DNA from: Thuidium tamariscinum
Taxonomy: Eukaryota > Streptophyta > Bryopsida > Hypnales > Thuidiaceae
DNA length: 64,000 nucleotides
NCBI GenBank assembly: GCA_947034885.2
Contig: OX344757.2
Location: 21,198,001 to 21,262,000, forward strand
Direction of reading: 5' to 3'
Below, piece by piece: positions 3,900 to 56,890 of this stretch. The notes beneath the pieces are model-generated. The model was not told the DNA's origin. It was given only the letters and a program-made list of their open reading frames with translations, and ran no database searches. Both the position numbers and the translations under genes were made by a program. Positions within the stretch are counted from its first letter, which is position 1, and each line of letters begins with the position of its first letter.

Positions 3900-5980
3900 A
3901 CAACAAGTGAAGATTCTATGTACAATTATTGAGAGTAAAATATCTGTATTTCTGCAATAATTGGGCTCCATTTGCCCTCAGCCGGGGTTGGCAACATTGA
4001 TACAAAGATAAGTCCCATGTCTTGAAAATTCTTACACTGTCTATTTTCACAGTAACTGCTGGTGGGACTTGTATTTTAGAGTGTGCCTCTACCAGGGATT
4101 TTCTGGCAAATGCACAAGGTGAATCATAGTCAATTCTGAAATGCAAAAGCTTGATACCATCCTCTTTTTGCTATTTATGGTTAAAATGTCATATGTGGCC
4201 ATCTGTTATGAGAAAAACACAAATTTGCAAGTGATTCCCACAATAATCCTTGTTACCTGAAAAACAGACCTGGGACCTAAAAGTATTAGCATTTTGGTAT
4301 GCATCCCCCACTATGGCCAAAATCAGAATAAGCAGTAGTCCAAAACATAACAATAATATGAGAATATAATTGTGAAACATTGAGGTTCAACAAGATACCA
4401 GGATCCAACTGGTTTATAAATGATCTCATAAATTCACCCACCTAATGGTAATGCAAAGAAACAAGAATTTACACTTACCAACATTGGTAGAAACATTGCT
4501 AATCAGTGACGGAACAGTAGTACATTGTGTAACATTTACTATCATCGGTAAACCAGCTCACGATGAGTACAACCAATGTAGTATGATTTATATACCATAG
4601 GGTTGTTGTGGTTCTTCTTGGACTCAAAATCTTGGGCCGGAGATGTGGGGGTAGTCCAGATGCCAGAAATTTGTTGTAACCAGTTGTCTAGCGAAAGCTG
4701 CACAGAAATTGCAATATATGAGCTGAAAGGAGAAGACTGAGCTCATGAAAAACAACAGAAAACTGGAAAAAAGATGTAACTACGGGGAGACGTTTGCGCA
4801 GGAACAACGGGACTCATGAAGATGTGACTGATATTTGGGGGGGCTTGGACTTCATGTCAGGCATGTATGACAGGATACAAAAGCCTGATCCTATCACCTT
4901 TTAACTGACCCCCGTTACCACTTTGAAATAGCATAAGAAATCATCATACATAGTGATAAAATTTTGTTCTGGAGAAAGTTCGACTCTTGTACCCAAACTG
5001 AACTCTCCAGAGCTTTAGACCAAGCTCGCAATGAAAGCAAACTCCATACTGATTCAAATGCTTGAAGAGACGCAGATAGTATCCTCTACCTTAGAGAAGG
5101 GGTTCGTTAGGATGTTCGCTTGCAGATTCAATTGGTCCACAGGACCCGGTTGGGTAAAAACTAGTAGCAGAATCATGCAAAGTACTTAAATCTGCGACAG
5201 AGCTGCAGACAGAGCTACAGAAGCAGATCCGGAGAGTCCAAGGGCATTCCACTGCAAAACACAACAGCAGAGTTCAGCATGCCGGCATCAACTAGAAAGC
5301 TGAAATAATAGGTTACCAGTTTTACAGGCATCTTCTGCAATGCCATCTCATATTGCAAGAGCAAATTGTGATCATTCTGGATACTCTTGTGAAACTAAGG
5401 CAGACAACTTACCTGCTGAAAAGAAAAGGTTGCTCACTTCGATCCATAGCAATTCAGCTTTATTTCGGGAGCAGTATACAAAGGCATATAGAATCTGCAC
5501 AAAATTGGTTCCAAATTTAAATAACCCAGTTGAGTCCTGCCTCTAACAAACTCGGAATAAGAAAAGAAGATTTAACAGTAAAAACATCTAGTCCAACTTA
5601 GAAATGCATTTGGAACTCCCAGAACATAAACTTTAATAGCTCACCACATGTTTCGGAGTCTTGGGTCGCAAAACAACTGAGTGAGGTCAACTGCAAGCGC
5701 CGGTGTTGAACCTCACAAGCCAGCGATTATCTCAAAACAATTCGACGCCATGAGGGACAATTGATTGCTCTTCATGAAGGAAGGTATGGTGAGTGCCTTC
5801 GATCCAAAGAATATAGTAACGATGAAATAATGGCATCCTCTCAATATAAGGATGCAGAAGAATCAGGAGCAGCGCCCTCAGTAACTAAAGAATCGTTGTG
5901 TCGGACTTCTACAAGAAACTAGTGTCACAAAAAACTAATACTATGATCTTCATCGCTTCAGGTTAATACGGTAACAACAA
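3900..5980. other. 3' flank of the exchanger gene, no assigned gene
   Basis: Base composition here is less AT-rich than in the distant spacers, as expected near a gene. Minus-strand ORFs at 4189-4380 (hydrophobic N-terminus) and 3916-4146 match no family I recognise. Some of the stretch could be 3'UTR of the exchanger or an unrecognised gene. I cannot support a coding call. Confidence 0.4.
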
Positions 5981-8900
5981 TCAGTCTAAGCTCCCCATTG
6001 ATGCCATCTGGGCCACTACAATACTAACCACCATGAATAAGATGTACCAGCCGATCAAGCACTTCCCCCACAGGCGAGTCAACTGGAATTTTGAAGAAGA
6101 TACAACAGAAAGGGTCCCGAGCAGGTTTAGGGAGAGAAACCCAAACGCAACCAAGATTCCAGGGTGGTGATCTAATTGGTACCCCACAGGGTAGTCTTTC
6201 GCAGTTCGTAAGCATAGAGCTGACCCTAACCCTACCAGCATGTTGAACATAGGACCTGCAAAACAACCGGCCACCGCCATTGCGGGTTGGCCAACCCTGG
6301 CAACAGCCACATCGGCCACGAGATCCCCAATGGAGTTCCCCCAAGCAAGCACTGTTAATCCCAACAATGCTGGCGACACGCCGAGAATGATACCTAGTGT
6401 TACTAGGCATCCAAGGAGCTCCCCGGCTATAACAGATATCCAAAACACACTCATGATAAACGCTACAGCTACCGCAAGAAGTTGGCCAGAAGCAGGAGGC
6501 CGTTTCACCGCTAGATAATACGCAGCTCCCATGAACGCTCCCTGCAGCAGTATGAGCACCCATACGGGTAGCCGCAGGGAAGGAGCCAGAAAGACTATGT
6601 GGCGATTGAGGGAAACTAAAGAGGTGAACATGTAGAGCACGAGCAGCGGGCATAGCACCACGTTTGCTGTTCCATAGTTCCTACTCCATTTGGCTGGCTC
6701 AATTTCAGGTATTGTGGACTTCAGCAGTACGGATACAGGCATGTTTAATATCATTATCACCTGCCAGAAGCAGAACAATTCTATGAGATCCAAAATCCAC
6801 CCACGGATGCACCTATATTATACCAAGACTAGGTATTTTCGTGGTATTTGAGATCGCCAGGGCAGATCTACACGGAGTCAAGCTACTGATACTTATACAA
6901 TACAAAAGAATTTACGGTTTATTGCAAAGTTAATCACTCCATGTATGATCCTATGCACAGGACACACCTTCGACTACTTCCAGGTCAGTGTCTGGCATAA
7001 GTTTCCAATATTGAACGTGTGATTACTAGCTTGATGAGAGACAAAGCTGGAAGTGAGGGTAATAAGCATACCTCTTCTGATGGGAGGAGTTCATTCAACC
7101 ACCTCACAGGGCTCATGAACACGTCCCAACATTTCTTGCCCAATGCTTCTTCTGCTTCCGACACCACTTTCACAGGCTCTCCAATTTTAAAGGACGAGAT
7201 ATCGACAGTCACGGCATCCTCTTCAGACATGTCTTTAGTGCCAGAGGCATTGGAGTTCTCCTTGGTCTCAACAACATCCCCTTTCGGTCCCGAAAAAACA
7301 GAATTCACCTCCTTCTTGTCAGTGCAAAGCACCACAACGACAAAGACGACGTAGAAAGAGACCATCCCTACAGCTTGCCAAAGCGCAATCTCGCCTTTCA
7401 GATAGATGATAAAGAGAAGCCCCACGGCACCAAGGTAAAACGACACATCCCGAATAAACGGTGTGGGCTGCAAAGAGAAAGGCGCGGCTGCCAGCGCCAC
7501 TGATCCCACCACAAACGCAGACACAAATGTGCCTGCACTCAGAATGGCACCCAATCCAATTCTCGAGTTGTCACCACCGATTGCGGCCAGGGAGGCAAAA
7601 ATGTCGGGAGCTCCGTTGCCGAGAGCCAGGAGCGTCACGCCACCCATGCTTGGGGTCATCCCGAGAAGCTCCACTAGCCGACGGACCACGGGTGAGAAGT
7701 AATTCTCCGCGGTTTCCGCTAAGATGTAAAAGGCCAGCAAGAGAATTGCGACAAGAACAGGCACTGAAACCCACTTCGCTCCACCCATTCCACAGAAATG
7801 GAGGACAAGGTAGTTCACCATGCTGCGCCCACTGTCGTCAGCGCAATACTTCCGCGCCATTTCACAGCGCACAAGGGGAGATTCGCTTGCCACACTTGCA
7901 CATTCCCTGCGCGTTGATAGACTCGCATGTCAGGAATTAGGGATTCATCTTGACTGGCACCTGACCCCTCAATCCATACCCTTATTTTGCGCATGACATT
8001 GCCAGAAGTTGAAGACCCTTGCGTACAGGAGTATACAGAGACATTCGGTGTGCCAAATGACATATTCGGACAGTTTCTGCCTAGCAACATCGAGAAGAAA
8101 GACAGAGGGATAGTTATCCTAAAAGAAGTGTACGACACTACGACGCATACAAGCATTGGCCCAGGGCCATTTTTCCAACAGCAAAAATGAAGGCAGATTG
8201 CTTAATGCAACATTCTACTAATCAAATACTCCTTAAACCAAAACTCGGGGTGTAAAAGTCATTTAAAACCCTAGACAGCGAACTTCAATTGGTCACTGCA
8301 ATCTCAATACTGAAGAATCAAAACATGGGAGATGGATTGAAAAAAAGCGCATTGTTGCTATCCTTCCAACAAACCTTAATAACTCACAAAAGTTTGACCC
8401 GAACACGACCAAGAATGATCTCATCACTTACGTGTTGAGAGCTCAATTCTTTGAGTTAAAAGTCGTGTTACAGCTCATTAGAAGCGCGTTTTTAAAAGCA
8501 AACAAACTTTGGTTGCAATTTCCGCACAAAATCTCAATTGAGTGCGACAATTGCATAAGCTACCAGATTGAGTTACCAGAGTCGCCTACACCCAACATCC
8601 GGAATAAAATCATCCCCTTCCTATCATTCAAATGAACGGAACCGGCCCTTTTCCCCGGTAAATCAGAAACTGATCTAAAAACAACGCAAAAATACAACAA
8701 TTCTCAATCAACAAGCGCCTCTTCAATCCACACCATTCCTTCAACTGCAAATCATCTACCAATCGCTTCCTTTCTCGCGGAAACCCTAAATGCACACCAT
8801 CTACAGTCAATTGCAGACATCCAATCACAAGGAAAGTTACAACCCCGTACCTGTTTGCATCCTCCTGACCCTCGTCCTTCGCCACCACATCTTCCAGCAA

Positions 8901-12193: not shown

Positions 12194-12636
12194 ATAGCGA
12201 CTTCTTTACAATGATGTGAATTCTATTTTGGAAGTAGAATTAAGGACGGGCATTGAGAGGCTCGACAGTCATTGCAATTTTGTGCTGAGGTATCTATCTC
12301 TTTTCTCTACAACTCGCACACAAAGGTATTGACGTTTGTTCAGTTTGAGGGATTGATGTATGATAGATGTTTTTTATGCAAGATTGCATCTTATTTAATT
12401 GTGATATGAGGAAACTTACTAGATCTGATGTTGGGTGCATGTTTCTTGACTACTAGAATTGTCTCGATGCAATTGTCATCTAATGTGGCAATACGCTAAA
12501 TCATGGAATATCTGAAGTGCTTGAATGTGGTTGTATTACATCATATCACTTTTTATTTGTGTAACTCTGATTTGGGTATTGACTGTGTATAGGCAATGTG
12601 AATTTGGTTTGTTTGCAAAGCAACGTACCGAAAACA

Positions 12637-13956
12637 ATGGATTCATGTGTCTCCGAGACAACTTCGAATGTTTCTGATGATTATGACTCTGAGTTTGGAG
12701 AGGACGAGGACGAGGACGAAATCTACTTGGATCATATTGTGTGGATCAAACTCCTTGAAGAGCTGTTGATACACATATTTGCAAGATTGCATGTGAAGAA
12801 TATCCTCCAAATTTGTTCTTTAAGCAAGTCTTGGAGATCTACCATAACATCTCCTCAATTCCAGCAAGCATTTTCCGAGGCTTCCTTGGTGAAGATTTCT
12901 CTGCTAGACATAAGTGGTCATCCTAGTACAATCTTCTTCAGCCAAGGGAATAAGGAGGAGCATTTTTGACCTAATTATAGTATTCCTTGTGCAACTAAGC
13001 TGCTTGAAATTTCTTCCGATGTAGCAAGTACAACGAGTGGCCTCATTTGTATTATTGATTATGAAGCACCTGTATTGCATACCGGACTGCATCCTAGATT
13101 GCATATTGGACTTCGTGATCACTATCTTGTCAAAAGAGTTTTTGTTATGAATATGGTGACCTGTGTTTGTCGTGAACTACCCTCTCCTTATATCATGAAC
13201 TTCGCACCTACATTGGTCTAGATGAAGGCAAATTTCAATGGCGGTTATACCATCACGTTTCTTTACACCGAAGACTGTGAATAGCTTCAAGTGACCTCAT
13301 AGTAGGTCTATGATTTTGTAAAGAATACATGGAGCAAAGATGATCATAGAAGAGCCATTGCAAACTTCAAAGATGTGGAAGTTTTCAACACATATTGTTC
13401 TTTAACCTGTGGTCAATTCTATGATGTTCCAGCAACTTTTTATAAGGAGACAAAGGCGATTAGCATACACTACAAGAAACCCATGTTTTGGGTGACGAGC
13501 CCTAATTTTTTATGACGGATTTTAGGTGATGTCAATGTTTACAACCCAAAAATTTTATGTCAACAAAAGTGTCCAATGTAACATCAATGTTGATAGTCCA
13601 ATGTTTTTATGTTAATATTGATGTTACATTGGACATTTTTGTTGACATAAAGTTTTTGAGTTGTTAGCATTGACATCACCTAAAATCTGTTATAAAAAAT
13701 TAGGGCTCGTCACCAAAGACAAAGGTTTCTTATAGTGATATTTAATCATGAAGAAAATGAATGGCTTGATTTTGGATTTTATCTTAATCATGCGCATAGT
13801 GTGTCTAGAGAGTTGTACAAGCTTTGTACCCAGAAAGGGCAGCATGGTGTTTGGAGGCTTGTGTGCTTAAGCAAATGGGAGATGGTATGCAAATTCCCTG
13901 ATTTGGAAGGTGAGTAGACTTGCCTTTGTGTGATGAATGACTTGATTGTTTTGATT
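12637..13956 (+). pseudogene. F-box gene relic with in-frame stops and a MITE insertion
   Basis: The ATG at 12637 opens an acidic N-terminus (EDEDEDE) followed by an F-box (about 12745-12890, core LLEELLIHIFARL and SKSWRS). F-box proteins recruit substrates to SCF ubiquitin ligases. The same frame continues to about 13917 with homology to the fragment at 15853-16292. It is interrupted by TGA at 12967 and TAG at 13219, 13282, 13300, 13303 and 13915. A 270-bp MITE plus its 3-bp duplication (273 bp) also sits in the frame without shifting it. The first ORF alone would give a 110-aa F-box-only peptide. I call it a pseudogene, though a short F-box protein cannot be excluded. Confidence 0.8.
13468..13737. 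mobile_element. CACTA-type MITE inside the F-box relic
   Basis: The ends are CACTACAAGAAACC and the inverse of CACTATAAGAAACC. The target duplication is ATA (13465-13467 and 13738-13740). Internal inverted repeats pair most of the element. The paralogous F-box fragment reads straight through the site (CGATCAACATATTTAAAC near 15938-15955), which gives a natural empty site and confirms the exact boundaries. Confidence 0.92.
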
Positions 13957-14060: not shown

Positions 14061-14271
14061 ATGTGCAAAACAAAACAAAATTCCAATGTTTCTCTTGGGA
14101 TAAATCCAGCCGGGGCAAGTTTGGTGGCTGGCGTCTGGGATGGAGCTCTAGCGTGTGAGTCTGGCTTCTCCCTTCTTGGAACGTCCTCTCGTGTTGCCTC
14201 GTCTTCTTCCCCACCTCGCTGCGTGGAATCCCCTCTCCCTCCCGGCCTTGACTGTTTTGATTTTTCGTACA

Positions 14272-15603
14272 ATGGAGGCAGGTTTCAGTAATAGACGTAC
14301 GAGTGACATAGCGGTCATTCTAATCGCTGCGGAGTTGACCGGAGGAGTGGAGGGTGGAGACACTAGCAAGAAGCAGAAGAGGAACGATGAGAGTGTGTTG
14401 GCTACTTTCACACTTCATTCTCATCGACTCCGTTGTTGGAGTAGATTCTTCGAAGTTGCTATGGAGGAGCGGTGGTCCAACTCCACCACCAACAGTCACA
14501 AGGAGCTTTTCCTAGAGGCCCAGGTAGATGTGCGCTATTACCAAGATTGCTTCGCGAGGATGTATTCCCCTACTTTTATCGCCATTTCAGATGTCGAGCA
14601 TGCTTTGGAGTTGTTAAAGATAGCGTCCCAGATTGAATTTGCAGAGCTGATGGAGCACATTCTTTGTTATTTATCTATAATACGATGGTCCGCCAGTGAC
14701 GATAATAAGATCCGGAATTTCCCGTTCACGACATACGTCGCGTCTAGGGATTTGGTTGAATTGCATGATCACATGCGATTCAGGGACAGTACTGAGGCAA
14801 GTTACCGGTACTTGTTTGCAGTTGCCAAATAATTTGTGAGGTCGAGTCTAGGATTCGCCTTAGATTCTGCAACGACGTCAGATACCGCTACCAGCCAGCG
14901 TTGCTGTTCTTTTTTCGAAAAAATGTTGCACGATATTCTGGCGGGATCTTGTTATGACCTGGCGAACAACACAATCGATATAATGCGTGGCAAAACGAAA
15001 GCATTGTTTTCGAAGATCGTCCAAGTAGGCGATGATACCGAGGTGTTGGATTCCAACTTTGGGAAAATATGTTGGTTGATGAAAATTCTTTTGAGTGCCG
15101 GAGGGGCGAAGGAGGTCGTGGAGTACATGCTAATGAAGAGCGATTTTTCAAGTAGTCTTTCTATGACCTTTACTACGGGTAGAGCTTTGGGAAAATGGTC
15201 GCTTCAATGGACCTATACGTTACTCTCCGGCTTCGATGAAGTATTGGTTGGGCGGCTATTGTTGAATTCTCTCATGTGAGTCCAGTTGTTTGAGCAGTGG
15301 GAGTGGCTATATGAAGCCCTATTTTTAAATAAAGATAAATATAGGGTTCTTACAACAAAACTTGCGAAAACTTTGAGTTCATTCATAGTAACCCTACCTC
15401 ATTATTATCAAACGGCCCTTGTTACAAAGTAGATGAGTCATGTTGATGATGCGGATGCGGAGGATATTTCTATCCCAGCGGCGCTGGAATTGCCTTATGA
15501 TGACCAATTTTTCCGCGAGATACTAGAGTTGGTTCATCCGTTATATATGAGCGATTTGCAGGCAGGGTTACTTTCTCTCGAATCAATTGCTTCCAGTAAG
15601 TGA
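14272..15603 (+). pseudogene. Intronless BTB/POZ gene relic
   Basis: From the ATG at 14272 the frame encodes a plant BTB/POZ protein of the At1g63850-like type. Visible parts are SDIAVIL, FTLHSHRLRCWSRFFEVA, a BTB core ending ISDVEHALELLKIASQIEF, and a helical C-terminal region. BTB proteins of this kind usually act as CUL3 adaptors or scaffolds. The frame stays open for 1.33 kb without a frameshift but has stops at 14830 (TAA), 15277 (TGA) and 15430 (TAG) before a final TGA at 15601. The first ORF would give 186 aa. All three internal stops could come from single C-to-T changes (CAA, CGA, CAG). The absence of introns would fit a retrocopy. No poly(A) tail or flanking duplication was found. 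Confidence 0.75.
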
Positions 15604-16866: not shown

Positions 16867-19800
16867 TTAGTGGGAGTTAAGGTAGTCTTCCGTCCATTTC
16901 CAAAGCTTGCTCCGCAAATTCAAGTCCAGCGCTTTGCCTTCCAGAGGATGCTCATTAACATCCATGAAGTATTTCCCAGACACTCCATTCAGGTGTGGGT
17001 GTGTTCCAACATATACTTGCGTTGCAGCACCCTGGTAAGAAGAATACAATCCACCATCAATAAAAAAAGAGAAGAAGAACTCTTTGACTATAAACATCAA
17101 TTCGGTTATATTTGGTAGAATATCACAACTCTGAAACTTTTCAGAACCCAAGTCCCTTGATATTTTTTTGAGATTCATGAAATTAGTTGTGAGGCAGGTG
17201 TGAAAAAAGAAAATCACGTTTGTTAAATTGGAGAAAATTCTGAAAGCCATCATTTCTCGAACAAGAATCGGAAACCTTTCTATTACTCGTAGAATTTTTT
17301 AAGCTTTGACCACTTGAATCTCACAATTTTGGTACTTTGAATAGCACCAATATTTCATGATTTAGACAATTAAAAAGATCTTTTTTGGGTAGTTCTTGTA
17401 ACTCACTTGTTCCGGAGTCTTGAATACGAACGCTGGTGTCAAACCTGGATAGAGCAACGCTGAGAAGATTAGCAGTTGACGTGGCAAGTGATAACTGAAT
17501 ACGCAGTACTATATTGAACAATACTTGTCTAATTACCGAATTTCTACTTCATACTTCAGTGCAAGCTCAGACACTGTATGTCTTGCAATTGATGACGGAT
17601 GATTAAGGTTGCAAATTTCGCTTTTGTGAGTAAAATTTCTCTTCAAAATTTTGATGGCTTCAAGTCAAAAAAGATATTTCCTTCTTCTCTTACTTCTCCA
17701 CTAATTGAAGGCTAAGATGAATAACACGGATAAAAATTTAGAAAATGTTTGTGGAGGAGAAAGGCAACATGAAAACAATTAGTAAGTGTGTCTTGCACTA
17801 ATTGATTTAATTTGAGAAATAGCAGAGAGTAACATTGGTTCATACCTGAGACCACGCCTAGAAACCCATCAAGGAAGGTAAGTTTCGTCCTGATGGCGCC
17901 GGGATGAAGTGTATTGACAGTAATGTTCACACCCTCTTCCTGTTGAAGGACCATCAAATTAACAGTAAGCTTAGTTTCCAATCCAGTGGATACTTAGCGC
18001 CCCTCCATTGTCAAAAAACAATTCCCATTTGCATGTGGTTCATTCTAAAATTTGCATGAGACCCACTCATTTTCTCATAGCTGACTTTGGCATTCGCAGC
18101 ATTAATTTATTTGTTTTCCGACGCCACATGCGGAAGCCGGTTAAGAGTGGCATACCTTCAAACGCGCAGCAAGCTCCTGGCAATGCAAAACACGTGCAAG
18201 GTTCGACTGCCCGTAGCCTGAGAATCCCCAGACCCTGTGGAAAAGAAAAGAAAAAGTGCCACATGTCATCTTCTGAATGGTGTGAGGTAACGTGGACTCT
18301 TCAGAATCTGACGTGGAAACTCTTCACTTTCGGTAATGAGTTGGGTCTTACTCTTTGGTGTTGACGAGTTTGTCGAATTGGATTCCCTCGTCGGGAGTGA
18401 ATTTGTAGCTTGCACCAGAAACCAGCACAATGCGTCCTTCAATGCCGCTTTCCTTGGCAGAGGCCTTCATGGTGTCGAGCAGCAAATCCGTCAGGAGGAA
18501 GTGACCTGAAGACAGTCGGCCACCACGGTGAGAAATCGTTCCAAATATTCAAAAGAACTTTGATCGGTTTTCTAACTTAGATGATGGAAATCATTGAACC
18601 ACAGGGTGTGTGTGTGTGTGTGTGTGTGTGAGATACTTCTGTATGCAAAATGATCATAATTTTCTAAGATTTTAGATGTCATAATTCATAAAATTATACC
18701 TGAAGAAATGGAGACAATCATTCTAGAAACCACTCGAAAAAAGGAAAATCATCTCCTTTACCTAGATAGTTGGTTGCAAACATGAGCTCCAAGCCATCGC
18801 GATTATTACTCGGAGCCTTGATCGAAGTAATCCCACCATTATTCCTGCACCAGAAAAAGTCCCCAAAGCAAATAATTCATGAGCACAGAGGCCAAGTCAA
18901 ACGGCTTTAAACCATTTGCACATGAGCTTCAATTTTTTGGAAAACAAGACATCAATGCCTTCGTCTTTTCACTTGCTTGAAGAAAATACGCTTGTATATA
19001 AACAGTAAGATGGGACTTGTTGCAATTCAACAATACCCAAATGGAATGTGAAAGCAAAGCGCTGTTATGAGAACCACACGATGTTAAATGTTTGGATCTT
19101 GGACTCTTTGCCAACCATGATCAATCCAGGCTCTCGAAATCATGGGGCTGATATTCAATTTTACAGTTCGAAGGCCCCTTGAAATCTTGGTGCAGACTTA
19201 CTTAAAGCAATTTGAATGTGGAGCGGCTTACACGAGAAGGTTAAGCGGGAGTTTCGACTCCTTATATTCGGAGCAAAACTTGCGCACCGACTTGACATCG
19301 CTCAAGTCCAAGTGCATCACCAGCACGCGAGCCTCGCTGCCAACTTCTTCCACGATCTGGGCCTTCACGGATTCGCCTAACTTCAAATTCCGAATCGCCA
19401 GGATCACGCGAGCACCTCGCTTTGCCAGCACTCTCGCAGTTTCCAAGCCGATCCCCGCAGTTCCACCTGCGACGTTGTAGTGCAATTCGGCCCAGGGTGA
19501 AATTCCGCATCTAGCTAGCTATACTTAGAATTGATTTGCACCAGAGATGTCCAGAAATTTCTTAGACCCAATTCCATACTGCAAGTGTGGAATTATACAG
19601 CTTGAGAGGGGGATATATAGAGCCCCGAAATTCCCTGCTGTAGCTGTGAAATTCTGTCGTTGCACTAAGGAATTGGGGAACCCCATTCGGCTCCAGGTTT
19701 CAGTCGAGAAACTCAATCAAAAACCTGTTTCCCGTTTTTCAAAATTCATATATCCGAGCTTCACCATGTCTGCGAATTCAGCCATTCTAACAAAGATGAG

Positions 19801-22804: not shown

Positions 22805-22876
22805 AGGTCCCGGCGAGATTTGAACTCGCGTTACTGGATTCAGAGTCCAATGTCCTGACCACTAGACTACGGGACC
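22805..22876 (-). tRNA. tRNA-Gln (anticodon CTG)
   Basis: This 72-nt cloverleaf decodes CAG codons. The acceptor stem GGTCCCG/CGGGACC pairs perfectly with a T discriminator. The anticodon loop is CTCTGAA, and the T arm is GCGAG-TTCAAAT-CTCGC. The internal A box (TAGTCTAGTGG) and B box (GTTCAAATC) are intact and CCA is not encoded, as in nuclear genes. There is no intron. Confidence 0.97.
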
Positions 22877-23324: not shown

Positions 23325-24901
23325 CTACTCCTGTTCCATGCGAACCTCGTACCACTGGAGGGATCCCTGACCATCTCCGAGGTCAAGCTCGCATACAGCA
23401 TTCACCAAAAATTGTACTGCTTCATCTACGTTCTTATATTTGGTCAAGTCTAAAGGGGGCTTCTCTCCAGGCCATTCTTGCAACCAATTCTGTCACGAAA
23501 ATGAACAAAAGAATCATATCAAAAACATCAAAAGATGGGGGACAGCAGTATAGGATTTTACAAGATATGAAAAGCGACAGTCTTCTCTGAAATATACTAA
23601 ATATATGAGACATATGATGACCTTAATGTATATGTAAAAAGCAAAGATCAAAGAGATAAACCCTAAGAAATCCTATTCTCATTAAAAAAGAAAGTATCAG
23701 ACCCTAAGCAGGATGGATTACAACGACCAAGCAGCTTTTTCAGTCTTATCTCACATCCTATTCGCCCCACTCTGTAAGATTCTTGATATATGAGAGTTTT
23801 CAAAGCGCACCAAGACGCCAGGATTCGTCCCCCTCTACAGGACAAAATAGCGATGAAATGCATAACTACTGCAATGGTGCACACCGGTGTGACTAGGTAC
23901 CTTAAGTTTTTCTTGCAGCTCTTCAGCTGTGACGAACTGCTCGTCTTCGCCAGGCTCCAACAACACGTAAGTTTCTGCATCTCCGTACATTGTACTCCGA
24001 CCAGACCGTCCGTGTGCCACAATCTGCATACATCGTCATATTCTTTAAATGGCAAAGTTTCAAGACATTGGCACTTCTTAAGAAATATGCCAGTCAAAAA
24101 TGAATCCTAATTTAAAGAGTCTGTGCATGTCTTGAATGTCCCAAACTTGACCAATGAAGGACGTCATTTTCACAAAAGTGACCATATGCATAGACAAGAT
24201 GACCTCCAAGAACTGATGTAAGGACGAGATTCACAGCACGCCTCAATTCAGCACGAATGGAATACAAAAACCCAGTGGTAATACGGATTGGCATGGCAAC
24301 AAACCTGGGATCCCCTTCCGTTGAATGCGGCATCTCGAGGAGCAACAGCTACGCTATTTATTCTTGGACTTCCCGTCAAATTGTGCGCAATTTCCACTTT
24401 CCCCTTGACTGCTCTACAGGCACTTCCCCTCCAAGCCACTGCCTGCACGGCGCAGACACTGATAAGCTTCTTTCTCTTACTAATCAAAATTCGGCAATTC
24501 CCCTTTCTCTCAGTAAAGGTCCAGTAGGATCAACAAGAGGCAAAAGCGTTGTAACCCCATCTTCTTAAAATTTTGCCAATTTAAGGCAGCACGAAGACGA
24601 GTCTCCAATCACCAAGCCTAATGATCCATTTTCAACGCTGAGAAAGCATTAACCACCACCTTAGGATGCGTGAATAGCTTGCTGCGTTGGACGAGTTCGT
24701 GAAGAACGGGAGTGACAAGTACTGTCCAATGATGGAATTCACCACTCTGAAGTCCAGTACTACTTGACACAAAACCTGAATTGCGAAAGCCAAGCAGAAG
24801 AAAGAAAGAACCTGCACTACGGAGGGGAGCGGAGAAGGAGTAATGGCTATGGTGAGGGAGGATGGCATCGCTTGTCGAGAGTTTAGGCCTTGAACCGCCA
24901 T
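23325..24901 (-). CDS. CRR7: CHLORORESPIRATORY REDUCTION 7, chloroplast NDH complex factor
   Basis: CRR7 is a small nuclear-encoded stromal protein needed to build and keep the chloroplast NAD(P)H dehydrogenase-like (NDH) complex, which supports cyclic electron flow around photosystem I. Four exons on the minus strand, all phase 0 with GT-AG borders, are 24901-24812, 24442-24305, 24023-23901 and 23489-23325, giving 171 aa. The first two exons form a Ser/Ala/Arg-bearing transit-peptide-like leader. The conserved part has AETYVLLEPG, EQFVTAEELQEKLK, NWLQEWPGEKPPLDL and the C-terminal GSLQWYEVRME. Identification rests on recalled resemblance to Arabidopsis CRR7, which is slightly shorter. Its promoter and first exon are duplicated at 40208-40670. 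Confidence 0.92.
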
Positions 24902-25106
24902 TGCCGTGATCTTTTGAGGCAGGAGCGCTCAGATAGTAACAACAAAAATTCCTGAGCCCCGGGTGCCGCACTCTACTTCAGGCAAGCCGAGACAGACTCC
25001 ATCGACAACAGCAACGTCGTCTTCGAAATATGATACTGGCAAGCAACAAAGAAAGCGACGGCTATGGCGGAAGGCGTCGTCTCCAATTCGGAACTCGTGG
25101 TTTTCT

Positions 25107-31019: not shown

Positions 31020-31950
31020 TTAACCCCTAAAGGACCAAGAGTCCCCTCGGGGGACTTTGGGATTTCGGGCAGGTACTTGTGACTTCAATTTTTGATGAAT
31101 TTTCTTGAAATTTTTACATAAGATATAAAAACTGATTAGCTCCGTGGAAATATAATTTTTTTTTCAATTGGTGACCGGGAGCAAAAGTTATGCCATTTTA
31201 AGCATAATTTTCATGTAGCCGGGCAGAAAAAAAAATCTACAAAAACTTAAAAATTAAAAAATTAATTTTTTTCCCTTATATGTCTTATTTTTGTCTATGG
31301 GTGAAGCTTTGATTCATTCCATTTGGATTAGTGATGTGGAAGTTATGAACAATCTTATTTTTCGGGCAATCTAAACATCTTCTCGAAAAAATAACTTATA
31401 GGATTCATTTGTGAATGCAATTTTTACAATTTTTCCAAAAAAATTGTTGGAAAAGGTTGGTTTTGTTTGCTAAAACAATCTCACTATTGGGATTATTGTG
31501 TTTCAATCCCATCTATAAGATATTTGCAATTTAAATTTTCTTTCAATCTTGGACCTTCATCTATTTAACAATTTTTTAAAGAATGAAAAAAAAGTCTTCT
31601 TTTGGGGGATTTTTTTTCCTAAGGTCTCAGCTCAATCCTTCAATAGAAAAAAATTTTAATTCAAGGTCTATAGTGCAAAATACTTCCACAAATGGAGGAC
31701 AAAGTCGTATGAAGTTGCATATCAAAGTTTAAAAAAACCTTGTTTTCCAATTTTGAATACTCATATCTTCTAATCTATGCAGTCAAACTTCATGAAATTT
31801 TCACCACATGATCTTAGATAAGTAAAGTACAAGATCCTACAGTTAGATTCTAAAATTTTACTTTTTTTTGTTTTCATGGATGAATGGAGCAAAAATGGCA
31901 GTTTTGAGTGGTTTTTGGCTAAAAAATGGCCATGGTCCTTTAGGGGTTAA
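31020..31950 (+). mobile_element. piggyBac-like TTAA non-autonomous element, complete
   Basis: TTAA (31020-31023) is followed by CCCCTAAAGGACCA. The right end is TGGTCCTTTAGGGG followed by TTAA (31947-31950), so the terminal inverted repeats are 14 bp and perfect. Exact TTAA targets and ends starting CCC are hallmarks of the piggyBac superfamily. A small hairpin, GTCCCCTCGGGGGAC, lies next to the left end. No transposase ORF is present. It sits inside the outer LTR. Confidence 0.85.
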
Positions 31951-40207: not shown

Positions 40208-40670
40208 ACAAGTACTGTCCAATGATGGAATTCACCGCTCTGAAGCCCAATACTACTCAACACAAAACCTGAATTGTAAAAGTCAAGTAGAAGAAAGAAA
40301 GAACTTGCACTACGGAGAGGAGCGGAGAAGGAGTAATGGCTATGGTGAAGGAGGATGGCATTGCTTGTCGAGAGTTTAGGCCTTGAACCACCATTGCCAT
40401 AATCTTTTGAGGCAAGAGCACTCAGATAGTAACGACAGAAATTCCTGAGTGCCGTGTGCCACACTCTACTTTAGGCAAGCCAAGCCAGACTCCATCGACA
40501 ACAACAACGTTGTCTTCAAAGTATAATATTAGCAAGCAACAAAGGAAGCGACGGCTATGGCGGAAGAAGCCCGGCAAGGGCATCGTCTACAATTCATAAC
40601 TCATGGTTTTTTGTATAGTAGGACGCCCTCACACGAGTGCTTCCCACTGTGTGAGGGCGTCTTTCTATAC
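40208..40670 (-). pseudogene. Duplicated CRR7 promoter, exon 1 and part of intron 1
   Basis: This block aligns along its length with 24715-25164. It contains part of intron 1, exon 1 (40394-40305, starting MVVQGLNSRQAMPSS), the 5' leader and the upstream hairpin. The original CRR7 exon end GCAG/GTTC has become GCAA/GTTC. Exons 2-4 are absent, so no CRR7 protein can be made. Similarity stops at the hairpin on one side and inside intron 1 on the other. It is a DNA-level duplication, because intron sequence is kept. Confidence 0.85.
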
Positions 40671-47087: not shown

Positions 47088-50000
47088 CTACCAATTTCTA
47101 ATTGAGGCTTTTGGAAACATTTGGCTAGTTCTCATTGTATTGCCAAATCTTTCAAAGTTAGGATCCTTTGGTTTTTCTGATACAATTAAATCTTCTCGTT
47201 TATTAGCTTGATCCAATATGAAATTTGGAAGGACTAAATGATTTTGGTATCGCTTCAACATTCTCATTGCCCTTGAGTTTAATGGAGTTTCTATGGGAGT
47301 AGCTTTAAAAGGTTTAGAGAAAAGTTGACTTGTTCTTTGGGTGTTTCCATATCTCAAAAACAAAGGTTTTGTTCCTTTTCCTTGAGGAATGACATTTTCT
47401 AGAGGATTGTCACCATCTAATGTTGATTCCATTGAAACCTGCATGCAAAATACAACTTGTTACACAAATACACAACTTGATTCACAATGTCATTTAAGTT
47501 AAAGTTGTTGAAGTGAATGGATTTTCTTGTATAAAAAAAATCTAAGACATTCTAATCTCTATTTTCTCAATAAATGCTTCATGAATTTCTCACACATCTA
47601 ATATAAGACAAGCAACTTGTGTATGTGCTTAAAGTCAAATTTCAATACTAGAAAATTCAATGACAAAACTAACAAAAATTTAATACAAAAGTATCAATTT
47701 TTTGTTGATTTAGAGGTGTTAATTTGGGTATTTTTTTACACAAAAGTGTTGATTTTTTTGGGATGTTTTTTATTAATTTGTTCAAAATAAATTATATAGA
47801 AAATAAATTTTAAATGACATTCAACCATACAAAATCTGCCATGTAAAAAATACCACACCATCAAAATGGCCACATAGGTCACCTTGTCACATGGTCCAAC
47901 CAATAGACAATGGCCACCTTGATATGCGGTTGCCAAGTTGAAATCCTAGACCTCTTGGATACCACCTTAAAGACTCTAACCACTACAATATACTAGAGCT
48001 TCTATGTCAAGAGTTGAGTTTAATTTAGGTACTTCTTTCACTGTCACCCGATAGACTTGTTAATTCAACAAACTTCATAGGCCATTAGGCATAGTAAAAC
48101 AATTTTTTTCAAAAAAATTTGAACTTTGAAAAGTTATGAAATTAAACTAAATTTCATCTTTAAGAATCTGTTTTCAATTTCAAGTCTCCTATCAAAAGTC
48201 ATGAATAAATTTCAGAGAGGGTGTTTAAAAATGTCAAAAAATAAGTTCATTCCAACCCCTCTATGAATTTATCTCATTACTTTTGATTGAAGACTTGAAA
48301 TTGCAAACAGATTTTTAAAGATGAAAGTTAGTTTAATTTCACAACTTTATTTTGTTTAAAGTTGTTTGAAAAAAGTTGTTTTACTATGCCTAAATGGCCT
48401 ATGAAGTCTGCTGATTTTTTTTAATACCAAATTGTGCATGATTAAGCTCTTTAAGAGAAAACATTGTGCATAGAATACTAACCATGGTGAATTAAACATT
48501 TTTCAAATGTCAAAAACTTACTTTAAGATACTTGTAAGTCAAAATAAACAAAAAAAAGTGGTGATTTCTTATTACTTTAGAATAGTAGTGTCCAAATCAA
48601 CAAAAATTGAGTGTTGATTTTGTCAATGTATGCCAAAATTGACAAAAAAAAACAAAAAACTGTAAAAATGAACAATACAATATCCATTTCGACAAAAATT
48701 TGTTAATTTAGTCACTATTTATCCTCTAGTATTTTTAATAGAAATCACATGAAGCATAAAAGACAATTCAATTTCAAATTTATCATTTTGGAGGAGGACA
48801 ATTAAGTGAACATGCCAATCTAAAAGATAATGACTTCCCAAACTCCCTATGAAATTTTTAGATATTGAAGTTATACAATGTGAATCCAAAACATTGGAAG
48901 ATAAAAAAAATGAACTAAGTAGGACCAAAATGCCCCTTTAGAAAAATGTCATCCATTGAGCACTTATTATCCAGGCTTACGTCTTTTCAAGGTTTAACTT
49001 CATAGATTCTAATGTACACATCAAGTCTTAGCTCCAATACCTATTAGTATTCATTGTTCAAGACTTCAAGCTCAATTATGTGACAAAATCTCTTATTCTT
49101 ATTGCTTCAAGATAAAATCCTCAAGTAAGATCAATCCTAATACATCTCATTATATGTTAGTTGTAAGACCAATCATATTTTGGGTTATAAATATGAGAAA
49201 AATATGCTCTATACCTGCAAACTAGGCAGTGGGTCAAAAGCCCGACTAGTTCGTTGGCCATATGGCTTGAAAAAAAGTTGTGAAGTTTGTTGGGTATTTC
49301 CAAATCTCATCCATATAGGTTTCTTTGACTTTGATTTCATTTCATTATTTGATGATTCTAATGATTTTGACAAGATGTTTCTAGATTCATTGTTGTGGCC
49401 CAACATAAGCTCTGATATGCGACGCATTGTCTTCTCGTCTGGAACCTCTGAGGTTCCTTGGTATGGGTCCAAAATCTTATCATGATCAATTTGTGCAAAT
49501 GGAGAAATCTTCCATCGATATGTCAAGTTTCGCTCCATTGAAAATGGGTTGATGATGCAAATTCGCTTTGTACCAATTGCATTCAATGGCACTCGCTTCC
49601 GCTCAATATATATGCGCTTCTTTGGGAAGAGCTCCAAGCGCAAATCTTCTGTCTTTGTAATACACACCTACACTCGCAATTTATTCATTTAGGAGCAATT
49701 CAACACTAAAATCAAAGTATATTCTTTTGGAATAAAATAAATTGACAATGAACTATAAGAGGTGCAAGTGATGGCATTCCAAATATATTTTAAGCCTAAA
49801 AAAATGACAAGGCACTTTGCCAAAAATAATTTGACTTTGGACCAATAGGTGCATTATTTGTTTCTACAACAATTTTGAAAGTCATCCATCAACCACTTCG
49901 GGGCCTTTGCAACATTTCAAGGTTCATGGATATGAAAGGATCATGTTGACTTTGTGTGTATAACAATAAAAGAAGATGACCATTTGGGATGCAATCTATG

Positions 50001-53000
50001 TCAGTTTTGAAGGTGATCAATAATGTGAAAGTTATGGACTTTGATATACATCTCTTTTGAAAACTTATAAAAATTTATGGTATTTCAAGAAAATGTGATT
50101 CTACTTTCTATTATTATTAAAAAAAATTAATAGAAGAAATGTTTAAAACTTCTTTCTTTTAGTGTAGACTCCACTTGTGTTGTATTCATGTAGAAAGATG
50201 AAATACAAATCTCAAATTATAGAGATCCAAGTATTTGCTAAAGCATTTGCATCATGGAGGAAAATTCATCACCCCAAACAATTTGTAACACATGTCATGG
50301 TAGGTGTTAAGTGAATCACACCTTAAATTTTTAACTCAAAACAATTAGATGTTGAAAGGAAATAATGAGAGTGCTTAGTGAATACCTAAGAATGAGATTT
50401 TTGTTGTTGTTTGCTTAGCTATTGAAGGTTGTATTTCATCTTTCTAAAGGAGTCATCTCTCAACTATGCAAGAAATTTGATTACTTAAAGTCAAATGATT
50501 TTCATTAAAAACTCTAGTTAAATTCAAAACTCATATTTGTAACGTACACCTTCCATCCTATCTTAGTTAACAAGACTGAACCAAAGAGTTCTCATTAAAG
50601 ATTTAGAAATACAAAGTATAATATCAAGCTCTTCAAATTCATGATTCTAAATGGAAAGCTTGTATGACTTCTTCTACAATCTTATCTTGCCCATGCCTTC
50701 AAAATTTGTGTTATATCTTTGGGAAGAGAACTACAATAGATATTAGTAGTAAAGAAGGTATAAATATTGAAATCTAGTGTTTTTCTAGGATAAACACTAG
50801 CATAAAATAACCAAATTTTGAACCTTAGAAGGGCTTGTAGACCTTATGGCTTCAGTGCTTACAATTGATATCTTAATACATGGTTTGGCAATTTGTCTAG
50901 GCCAAGGTGTAGTGGTAATGCTTTATACACTAAAGATTGTAGCCTACTGTGGATTTGTGGATAAAAAATAAAAATAAAAATCCTTGACCTCCAAGTCTTT
51001 GATGTGGCGACGCATGTCAAGAGAGATTGAGTTGTTCTTGCAGCGCCAAATAGATGGCAAGTACATGGAGGGGTGGGGTAAGTCTAAGTGAGGGAACTTT
51101 GGACCTTTGTGTAGGATCTTTCCTTGCAACCAATTAGGCCGTGTAGGATCCCGGTTAATATTGAGTGGCATTTGTCCACAATTTTTTATCTTCACAAGAT
51201 ACTTAGAACATCCACGTTTTGATCCATTTGCTTCTATCTTGCGAACTACTTCTTCACCCTTGATTACCTAACTCAACCATATTATTTTGCATGAAATTTA
51301 GCTATATGAAAGTTCACTAACAAACAAATTGATTAGAATATTTACAAGGTTTTTTGTAACTAATGACAACACTTGCAATGCAACATTATATATTGTAGCC
51401 AAATTTCCTCCTAGTATCACTCATGTATCATTCAAATATTACTTAATTAAGTACCATCTATTTTTTATCCAAATGTCTCCCAAATATTATCCAAATATTA
51501 TTAAGCAGATATCATTCAAGTATAGCTCAACTATCATTTCTATAATACATAAGTATCAAAGAAAGAAAATATAAGCCAATATGCTAGCTACTCATGTGAG
51601 ATAGATTGAATTAATTTGATTATTAATTGTTGTTTAAAATCTATATTTACTTTTGCTAACCTGGCCAAAGACAACATGATGGCCATCTAACCAGGGACAT
51701 GGTGCTAATGTAATGAAGAATTGGGAGCCATTGGTGTTGGTCTTGCCAGAGTTTGCCATGGACAACATGCCAAAGCTAGTATGTTTTATCTCAAAGTTCT
51801 CATCGTCAAAGAGTTCCCCATAAATGGATTCACCTCCCATGCCATTATTGCGCACAAAGTCACCTCCCTATCTCATTCAACCATCATAATGCTCAATTTT
51901 AATTTTTGATCAACTAACCATCATGCTACTAAAAAATTAAAATACATTATCATATTTAGTAAAATTATAAAATTACAAAAAACCAGCACTTTTGAGATGA
52001 TTGTATTGAAACTTGAATCTACATTTATCATCCTAGTTTTTAGAGTTGTGAATATACACTTGAATATTCCAATGGGGATGTATTTAAAATTCAAGAATAC
52101 ATACATCAAAATTTATCTATGTATCAAAATTTTGCAAAGTTAGAAAGGTCAAAGATGATTTGAATGAAAAAAATAAAGGTGAACAATCTTTATAGTGAAA
52201 TCAATAAAAATTAAGTGCTTCTCAAAATGTGTCTTAGAAAGTGCAAAGAATGAATTAATGTTTCTTGTATAATGTTTAATAACATGAGTATATTAAAATG
52301 TAAGCACAACTTAGAAAAATCTACCAATTCATTTTTGAATTCTTACAACTTTTCCACATTATATTTGATTAGCTACATCATTACTAGAAGATACTGTTGT
52401 TTTGTTGTTTTGGTTGCAAAGATTTGGTCACTTTTTTTTGTTGATTTTGACACATATTAATTGAAATTTGTCTGAATCAACAAAAAAGTGACTAAACCAA
52501 CGTGACCAAAACAAAACAAAATCGAATTTTTCAGTTGACAAGAATTTATTACAATTTAACTTCATGTAATTAAAAAAATGAGAGCTTATAACATTAGTAG
52601 CCTTTAGAAAGGCTGCCTTTTCCTCTTTGAAGGCCCTCATCCATCAAAAACATCTAGATAGGGAACTAAAGTGTAATAAAGAAGATTTGTTTTGTTATTA
52701 ATTGTATTGTAGTTTTTTGTTGCAACCTTGGCACTAGCTAACTAAGTAAAGTTCACTATCTAACAATTTTGACATGTATGACATATATTAGTAGTTACTG
52801 ATTTTGGTGTAAATTATTCGACACTAATTCATCATACAAATGAAATGATGTGGAATATTCCACATCATTCCATCAAACCAAAGGCAGGCTGTAGTGTTAC
52901 TACAAAACATTATGCTCTTGAAAATATAATAATGATTTTGAGACAAATTTGATTTTAAATAGTAATATTAATTTAGATGCAACAAACAACTATAGTAGTA

Positions 53001-53960
53001 TGAGAGCTTTTGTCCTTCTTGAATTTCTTCACACATAGCTTAAACTATCAATGTATAGTAAAGCATCTTCCTTTCAATACAAATCTTATAGGGATCTTTT
53101 AGAGGATCAAGACAAAAATTTGTTTATGAATGTCATAGAAGGATGTTGCAACTTCAATTGAACTATGTATAAGAATAGGATTTGACTCACTTGAATGCAA
53201 AAGTTGGGGATAATTCGAAAGAGTTCGCTATGGCGGTACCAACGAAATGATCCTGAGGAGCCTGTACCATATTCCCCTGTACATAGCCCTCGAAAATTCT
53301 CTGCTGTCTTAGGCACCACATTTTTAAAGAGTTCAAACCAAATGCGCCCCTCAAATACTTTGTTGATAGTGATGTCAAAGTACACAATGGGGTTGGGAGT
53401 CTCTTTGGATTCTTTTGCAAGCTTAAGCTCCAACAGACTCTTGTTCATTCATAATACACCCATTAATTTTTCATATGACAAGTATCATTGAAGGATTTCA
53501 CAATTTAAAGAAAATCAACTATTGTCTGAAGTTGTTTTGTGCAAAATGAGAAGAAAAATACAAAAAATAAAATGGAAAAGGACGTAAGAGGAAAGAAACA
53601 TAGAAAAAGAAGGTGCCAAAATGTAAGAAGATTCTTTGAAATCTTGACCCTTTTATCAAAACCTAAATTTTTCATGTTGATTGGCTTTCCTTGAAGAATT
53701 CTAGAATCTACTTAGCCTTTAGAAAACCTACTACTACCATCCAATCTTCATGCATAATAGGATGGCGTTAGAAAAAATTGATTCAAAAATTCTTATCAAT
53801 GCAATACTCACCTTTCTTTTGGCACACCCTCTACTAGAGCCTCTACACCTCCCACCATTGGCACATCAACGTCTACTATAGCCTCTGAGACTTCAATATT
53901 CATCTTTGAGCCCAACTTTGAATCCTTAAGTGTGGACTTGCGAGCAATTGCCTTAGCCAT
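47088..53960 (-). CDS. Cyclophilin-type peptidyl-prolyl isomerase with repeated C-terminal GNT-TSQ motif
   Basis: Six coding exons on the minus strand (53960-53812, 53437-53191, 51867-51661, 51267-50989, 49667-49215, 47438-47088) join in phase to 561 aa. Residues about 65-233 form a complete cyclophilin domain: [22 protein letters not shown] (catalytic Arg), [23 protein letters not shown] and [11 protein letters not shown] (Trp and His of the active pocket). It should therefore be an active prolyl isomerase. The tail of about 330 residues is not an RS, RRM, TPR or WD domain. It carries three copies of one motif: [15 protein letters not shown] (415-429), [15 protein letters not shown] (474-488) and [14 protein letters not shown] (542-555). 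I do not recognise this architecture. Introns 2-5 are phase 0. The exon 2 acceptor is weak, so that border is least certain. The first 49 residues lack an obvious targeting signal. Confidence 0.88.
48071..48407. mobile_element. Foldback element in cyclophilin intron 5
   Basis: The left arm starts AACTTCATAGGCCATTAGGC and the right arm ends in its near-complement GCCTAAATGGCCTATGAAGT. Pairing continues inwards for about 150 bp. There is no coding potential. It is probably a MITE. Confidence 0.75.
52423..52500. repeat. Short inverted repeat in cyclophilin intron 2
   Basis: TTGGTCACTTTTTTTTGTTG pairs with CAACAAAAAAGTGAC and TAAACCAA across a loop of about 20 bp. Confidence 0.65.
52844..52869. 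repeat. 26-bp perfect palindrome in cyclophilin intron 2
   Basis: AATGATGTGGAAT is followed directly by its exact complement ATTCCACATCATT, with no loop. Confidence 0.9.
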
Positions 53961-55961: not shown

Positions 55962-56890
55962 TTAACCCCTAAAGGACCAAGAGTCCCCTCGGGGGACTTT
56001 AAGAATTCGGGCAAGTACTTGTGACTTCAGTTTTTAATGAATTTTCTTGAAATTTTCACATAAGATAGAAAAACTGATTAGCTCTGTGGAATTTTTTTTT
56101 TTTTCAATTGGTGACCAAGAGCAAAAGTTATGCCATCTTAAACATAATTTTCATGTCGCCGGGCAGAAAAAAAAATCTACAAAAACTTCAAAATTTAAAA
56201 ATTAATTTTTTTTTCCTATAGATTTTATTTTTGTCTACAAGTGAAGCTTTGATTCATTCCATTTGGATTAGTAATGTGAAAGTTATGAACAATCTTGTTT
56301 TTCGGGCAATCTAAGCATCTTCCTGAAAAAATAACTTATAGGATTCATTTGTGAATGCAATTTTCACAATTTTTAAAAAACAATTGTTGGACAAGGTTGA
56401 TTTTTTTTGCTAGAACAATCTCACCATTGGGATTATTGTGTTTCAATTCCATCTATGAGATATTTGCAATTTAGTTTTTCTTTCAATCTTGGACCTACAT
56501 CTACTTGACAATTTTTTAAAGAATGAAAAAAAAGTCTTTATTTTGTGAATTTTTTTTCCTAAGCTCTTAGCTCAATTTCTCAATAGAAAAAAATTTAAAT
56601 TCAAGGTCTGTAGTGCAAAAAAATTACATAAATGGAGGACAAAGTCATTTGAAGTTGCAAACTAGAGTTTAAGAAAACTTTGTTTTCCAACTTTGAATGC
56701 TCATATCTTCCTATCTATACGGTCAAACTTCATGAAATTTTCACCAAATAATCTTAGTTAAGTAAAGTACAAGATCCTATGGTTAGATTCTAAAAATTTA
56801 GTTTTTTTGTTTTTCATGGATGAATGGAGCAAAAATGGCAGTTTTGAGTGGTTTTGGGTTGAAAAACGGCCGTGGTCCTTTAGGGGTTAA
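55962..56890 (+). mobile_element. piggyBac-like TTAA non-autonomous element, complete
   Basis: TTAA (55962-55965) and the left end CCCCTAAAGGACCA mirror the right end TGGTCCTTTAGGGG and TTAA (56887-56890). It is 2 bp shorter than the copy at 31020-31950 and very similar to it along its whole length, including the subterminal GTCCCCTCGGGGGAC hairpin. There is no transposase ORF. Its right TTAA is also the start of the next element. Confidence 0.87.

What the first reader, a model, noticed from the sequence alone, without database searches (positions are those of the whole stretch)
47088..53960. Cyclophilin with three copies of an unrecognised R-[FY]-GNT-x-[RQ]-TSQ-[LM]-F motif in its tail
The cyclophilin domain keeps its catalytic Arg, Phe, Trp and His positions. 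The roughly 330-residue tail has none of the usual partner domains. Instead it repeats [30 protein letters not shown] and [14 protein letters not shown] at intervals of about 60-70 residues. Repeated short linear motifs on a prolyl isomerase suggest a scaffold that binds several copies of one partner, or phosphorylation sites at T-S-Q. The sequence and splice phases are seen directly; the role is inference.
Basis: partly seen in the sequence, partly recalled or inferred. Interest (0 to 1): 0.82.

Follow-up and report, generated by a model that had tools for sequence, protein, structure and literature searches.

The report
Cyclophilin with triple-motif docking tail
A protein-folding enzyme of the cyclophilin family, in what is probably a plant, carries a long positively charged tail in which one short, well-preserved motif occurs three times; the tail probably anchors the enzyme to a partner, which is not yet known.

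Summary
Six minus-strand exons between 53960 and 47088 splice at GT-AG sites into one open 561-residue protein. Residues 69-232 match Pfam Pro_isomerase (148.3 bits, cut-off 21.7). Pocket residues are kept at 8 of 9 positions; Met61 is Cys (numbering recalled). The 327-residue tail holds three copies of a motif wider than reported: K-x3-P-x-[FW]-x-R-[FY]-GNT-x-[QR]-TSQ-[LM]-F-x-K. The best triple has 9 of 14 invariant positions; 200 shuffles of the tail gave at most 4. The copies differ at silent sites while amino acids are kept (dN 0.19-0.37; dS 2.1 for one pair, not computable for two). They are therefore not a recent duplication, and selection on the protein is the likely reason.

No relative of the tail was found in Pfam, NCBIfam, solved structures or IMG/VR; one prokaryote pattern match does not encode the motif. 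No eukaryotic genome collection was available, so conservation across species is untested. Best reading: an active prolyl isomerase whose basic arm docks at several points on a repetitive or multi-subunit partner. The partner is inferred, not shown. Membership among microtubule PYG repeats was tested and not met; the ATM/ATR-site reading is weak.

The parts
53812..53960 (-). exon 1, residues 1-49 plus two bases; N-terminal extension, no known domain
   Evidence: ATG at 53960, donor GTGAGT; an alternative in-frame ATG lies at 53448, 11 bases before exon 2
53191..53437 (-). exon 2, start of the cyclophilin domain (R55-, F60- and Q63-equivalent positions)
51661..51867 (-). exon 3, cyclophilin core (A101, F113, W121, L122 and H126 equivalents)
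50989..51267 (-). exon 4, end of the cyclophilin domain (to residue 234) and the first 60 residues of the tail in one open frame
49215..49667 (-). exon 5, residues 295-445, basic tail with motif copy 1
49272..49307 (-). motif copy 1 core, [12 protein letters not shown]
47088..47438 (-). exon 6, residues 446-561 and stop, with motif copies 2 and 3
47319..47354 (-). motif copy 2 core, [12 protein letters not shown]
47115..47150 (-). motif copy 3 core, [12 protein letters not shown]

Best explanation
A real gene for a probably active cyclophilin (prolyl isomerase) joined to a long, basic C-terminal arm. Shown: the gene model is open throughout; the cyclophilin domain is complete and keeps 8 of 9 pocket positions; the arm holds three copies of a roughly 22-residue motif, diverged at silent sites but kept in amino acids. 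Inferred: the arm is mostly extended, and each motif copy docks on the same kind of surface, so three weak contacts together (avidity) hold the isomerase on a repetitive or multi-subunit partner such as a polymer or an oligomer, where it acts on prolines of that assembly. The partner is not identified.
For: Open six-exon model. Pro_isomerase 148.3 bits. 98 of 170 aligned columns identical to the best-scoring solved cyclophilin chain. Three motif copies far beyond chance. In the 14-residue core, 5 of 11, 4 of 10 and 6 of 10 identical residues per pair have different codons, including serine written TCA in copy 1 and AGT or AGC in the others. Between -40 and +17 only two shared positions lie outside -10 to +12. 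Basic tail, 55 K+R against 32 D+E. Copy 1 lies in exon 5 and copies 2-3 in exon 6, which ties these two exons to one protein.
Against: No relative of the tail was found in what I could search, so conservation between species is unknown. Neither AlphaFold job gave a usable model (mean pLDDT 37.8 and 35.9, single sequences from exon 5), so an extended arm is not demonstrated. Nothing shows binding or a partner. There are no transcripts, and the joints at introns 1 and 4 are weak. dN and dS rest on 14 codons.
Confidence: 0.5

Rival explanations
1. The motifs are phosphorylation sites for a PI3K-like kinase (ATM/ATR, which favour SQ/TQ; recalled), and the tail is an SQ/TQ cluster that controls the isomerase after DNA damage.
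For: All three copies hold T-S-Q and two also hold N-T-Q; 5 SQ/TQ in residues 411-561.
Against: The invariant positions extend to P, R, G, N, F and K, which such kinases do not need (recalled preference). SQ/TQ enrichment in the tail is modest (p 0.03) and there is none in residues 235-410.
Confidence: 0.1
2. The tail is a ciliary microtubule-binding arm like those of microtubule inner proteins, and the protein serves the axoneme of swimming sperm in a plant that has them.
For: Architecture only: short motifs with an aromatic-Gly-x-Thr element repeated every 60 to 93 residues also occur in CIMIP2B (about residues 21, 93, 186, 246 in chain 9cpc_4M). A radial-spoke protein, RSP12, is called a peptidyl-prolyl isomerase (passages of PMC3471859).
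Against: The motif is not a PYG repeat: 311 of 2000 (best sum) and 83 of 2000 (all sum) column-permuted versions score as well, and this comparison was chosen after seeing a likeness. No ciliary chain was among the hits of exon 5, exon 6, the motif profile or residues 280-359. The organism is unknown, so motile sperm is a guess.
Confidence: 0.12
3. Ordinary cyclophilin gene with a lineage-specific tail whose repeats are an old duplication without specific function.
For: No homologue of the tail was found, though no eukaryotic genomes could be searched.
Against: Silent sites between the copies are strongly diverged while 9 of 14 core positions are invariant, which neutral drift would not be expected to leave.
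Confidence: 0.13
4. The gene model is wrong: exons 5-6 belong to a separate gene, or the tail is not translated with the cyclophilin.
For: Weak donor of intron 4 (GTCAAG), a 1321-base intron 4, no transcript.
Against: Same strand, phase-0 joint, and the exon-4 frame already runs 60 residues past the domain. Minus-strand frames wholly inside intron 4 reach at most 61 codons (list of 40 codons and more); I did not examine them as possible first exons.
Confidence: 0.12

Closest known systems
Cyclophilin family (PF00160)
   Same: Complete domain; pocket residues R55, F60, Q63, A101, F113, W121, L122 and H126 kept by alignment (CypA numbering recalled)
   Different: Met61 is Cys, Ala103 is Ser, one residue inserted in the [12 protein letters not shown] loop, and extensions of 64 residues at the N-terminus and 327 at the C-terminus
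Multidomain cyclophilins of plants (TPR/Cyp40, RRM/CYP59, WD40/CYP71, U-box, RS-rich; recalled)
   Same: Cyclophilin domain fused to a second region
   Different: Full-length Pfam scan found no second domain above cut-off; three SR/RS dipeptides in the whole protein by eye, so it is not an RS tail
CIMIP2/FAM166 PYG-repeat microtubule inner proteins (passages of PMC10973386)
   Same: Several short motifs with an aromatic-Gly-x-Thr element spaced 60 to 93 residues apart
   Different: No GYTG-x2-P stretch as printed for CIMIP2; alignment not clearly better than permuted motifs
Radial spoke protein RSP12 (passages of PMC3471859)
   Same: Called a peptidyl-prolyl isomerase
   Different: Recalled as a cyclophilin without such a tail; its sequence was not compared here

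Membership tests
Cyclophilin (PF00160) | Whole-domain profile match above curated cut-off | tested here: met
   148.3 bits, cut-off 21.7, profile positions 1-158 of 159
Cyclophilin (PF00160) | Catalytic and proline-pocket residues | tested here: met
   8 of 9 CypA positions kept by alignment with two solved chains; M61 is C (positions recalled)
Cyclophilin (PF00160) | Prolyl isomerase activity, cyclosporin binding | not testable with these tools
   needs purified protein
Known multidomain plant cyclophilins | Second domain: TPR, RRM, WD40 or U-box | tested here: not met
   only PF00160 above cut-off in the full model; RICTOR_M at 12.2 bits (14.4 for exon 5 alone) is below its cut-off of 27
PYG-repeat microtubule inner protein (CIMIP2) | PYG repeat signature | tested here: not met
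   no GYTG-x2-P stretch; 311 (best sum) and 83 (all sum) of 2000 permuted controls reach the score against 9 of the 20 repeat fragments printed
Mn, SNYG, NWE microtubule-binding modules | Module consensus | not tested
   only partial consensus seen in the passages; no profile on hand
SQ/TQ cluster protein | Enrichment of SQ/TQ beyond composition | tested here: inconclusive
   5 against a mean of 1.9, p 0.03, all within the motif copies
Conserved family with this tail | Same tail with the motif copies in other species | tested here: inconclusive
   0 confirmed loci in viral contigs; 1 pattern match in prokaryote genomes that runs into a stop after SYGNT; no eukaryotic collection available

The most novel reading that the evidence does not exclude
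A so far undescribed family of plant cyclophilins whose tail carries a new three-copy docking motif that places a prolyl isomerase at regular points on a polymer, possibly the axoneme of motile sperm or another cytoskeletal lattice.
Probability: 0.15. Interest if true: 0.65.

Novelty: new variant of a known kind. Interest (0 to 1): 0.42.

Why it matters
Many multidomain cyclophilins are placed by a known second domain (recalled). A tail with one motif kept three times points to a specific partner that could be sought with simple peptide pull-downs, and would add a new way of placing a prolyl isomerase. If relatives turn out to be limited to plants with swimming sperm, it would be a lead into their flagella.

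Tried and rejected
Solved structures: exon 5, exon 6, the three-motif profile and residues 280-359 gave no credible relative (the last two had no hit at E 10). The 2e-06 hit is named circular tendon repeat protein and is a sum of eight weak stretches, none passing on its own, so it is rejected; the other three hits (E 0.85-0.89) and the five (E 0.29-0.83) are chance level. Residues 235-279 were searched against solved structures only within the full-length query (limit 1e-5, 60 of 148 matches shown).

A beta-sandwich (ASH/HYDIN-like) reading of about residues 300-350 was considered from the look of the sequence. Pfam and PDB gave no support, and the AlphaFold models were too poor to search with, so no fold search was made.

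PYG repeats: not met. A degenerate fourth copy, YGQRTSRAF at residues 430-438: 170 of 1000 (whole protein) or 78 of 1000 (tail) shuffles score as well, so not claimed.

Literature: ten searches. I saw titles and starts of abstracts only, and capped lists in two (15 of 107, 20 of 51); none named a cyclophilin with such a tail. Passages of three papers were read: PMC10973386, PMC4378016 (Volvox cyn23, unrelated) and PMC3471859. Three motif strings from the window and two variants were in 0 papers. The library holds only open-licence papers.

Full report
What is there. On the minus strand between 53960 and 47088 six exons can be joined at GT-AG sites into an open frame of 561 codons. Exon bounds are 53960-53812, 53437-53191, 51867-51661, 51267-50989, 49667-49215 and 47438-47088. 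The joint at intron 1 is in phase 2, the other four are in phase 0. Exon G+C is 34-46%, intron G+C 25-30%. Frames as long as those of exons 5 and 6 stay open in 0 and 5 of 20000 random sequences with the introns' dinucleotide content, and the longest stop-free run in the introns is 72 codons. The model has two weak joints, the acceptor of intron 1 and the donor of intron 4, and no transcript was available.

The enzyme domain. Residues 69-232 match Pro_isomerase with 148.3 bits over nearly the whole profile, and nothing else in the full protein passes a Pfam cut-off. The best-scoring solved chain is a peptidyl-prolyl cis-trans isomerase, 5yb9 (E 5.5e-60; 60 of 148 matches were shown), identical in 98 of 170 columns of that alignment. 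In CypA numbering (recalled), R55, F60, Q63, A101, F113, W121, L122 and H126 are kept, M61 is Cys, A103 is Ser, and one residue is inserted in the [12 protein letters not shown] loop. The domain is expected to be active; this was not measured.

The tail. Residues 235-561 are basic (55 K+R, 32 D+E, pI 10.07). The first 60 are in exon 4 in the same open frame as the end of the cyclophilin domain, so the protein runs past the domain whatever happens at intron 4. Three copies of a motif have their GNT glycine at 417, 476 and 544. Lined up without gaps they share K(-10), P(-6), R(-2), G, N, T, T(+5), S, Q, F(+9) and K(+11); [FW] at -4, [FY] at -1, [QR] at +4 and [LM] at +8 are similar. In the stretch compared, -40 to +17, only two further positions (-40 and -24) are shared by all three. 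Chance is excluded: 9 of 14 invariant positions for the best triple against 3 (151 shuffles) or 4 (49 shuffles) in 200 shuffles of the tail. The degenerate DNA pattern, written from the copies, matches three times in the window against a mean of 0.00 in 100 shuffles.

Is the motif kept by selection? Within the 14-residue core the pairs of copies share 11, 10 and 10 residues; of these 5, 4 and 6 are written with different codons. The serine is TCA in copy 1 and AGT or AGC in copies 2 and 3, which takes at least two base changes. By Nei-Gojobori dN is 0.20, 0.37 and 0.19; dS is 2.1 for one pair and could not be computed for the other two. These are 14 codons, so the numbers are rough. Still, the copies are not a recent duplication, and amino acids have been kept while silent sites changed. 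Independent gain of the motif would also count as selection for it.

Relatives. Exon 5, exon 6 and the cyclophilin part (with the start of the tail) used as queries in the IMG/VR viral contigs gave 1, 23 and 1 stretches with a peptide pattern, none confirmed by tblastn. The motif's DNA pattern gave 0 matches there and 1 in the prokaryote genome collection, in a Heimdallarchaeota assembly. That match does not encode the motif: in its own frame it reads SYGNT and then a stop (frame 3907-4122), and it lies antisense within a 437-codon frame that reads like an aminoacyl-tRNA synthetase (recalled resemblance). Pfam, NCBIfam and solved structures gave no relative of the tail. No plant or other eukaryotic genome collection could be searched, and the window's own genome is not held. 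So this negative says little, and the tail may well be known to plant protein databases.

How it may work. The most likely reading is a prolyl isomerase placed by a multivalent arm. Three copies of one motif, each about 22 residues, with 59 and 68 residues from one to the next, suggest three contacts with identical surfaces, as on a polymer or an oligomer. Conserved aromatic and hydrophobic positions with R and K at both sides look more like a docking motif than a bare phosphorylation site. All of this is inference. The five SQ/TQ pairs in the tail all lie in the motif copies, so the kinase-site reading has no independent support.

The ciliary idea. I tested a resemblance to PYG repeats of microtubule inner proteins, described in passages of PMC10973386; real CIMIP2 repeats appear. 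The bait was my own composite and leaned towards the window's motif, so that call shows only what the real repeats look like. Spacing is comparable, sequence is not: permuted versions of the motif reach the score in 311 (best sum) and 83 (all sum) of 2000 trials (against 9 of the 20 printed fragments). The idea remains only as an analogy. RSP12, a radial-spoke protein, is called a peptidyl-prolyl isomerase in PMC3471859 (passages), but I did not compare its sequence.

Verdict. A genuine and somewhat unusual cyclophilin with a constrained three-motif tail. Filed as a new variant of a known kind, of moderate interest.

Noticed in passing
window 5981-7929, minus strand: Two sodium/calcium exchanger halves (Pfam Na_Ca_ex in each) in different frames with 167 bases between the open frames: a short intron or a frameshift in a cation exchanger gene.
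   Followed up: no
window 14152-15279, plus strand: Two open frames of 226 and 148 codons in the same frame, parted by a single stop codon; reads like a BTB-type protein from memory, but Pfam found nothing at E 0.01. Possibly a decayed gene.
   Followed up: partly
window 49236-49262, minus strand: YGQRTSRAF right after motif copy 1 looks like a shortened fourth copy; not better than chance.
   Followed up: yes
window 31156-31455 and 56096-56395; 24715-25014 and 40208-40507: Two pairs of 300-base direct repeats, 91% identical; perhaps transposon remains.
   Followed up: no
window 12583-12969 plus and 19228-19518 minus: F-box domain and short-chain dehydrogenase frames.
   Followed up: no
window 50944-50988, minus strand: If intron 4 is retained the frame ends 14 codons later, giving a 308-residue short form without the motif tail (one search gives the frame).
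   Followed up: no
window 22805-22876, minus strand: A tRNA gene, the only Rfam match in the window at gathering score.
   Followed up: no
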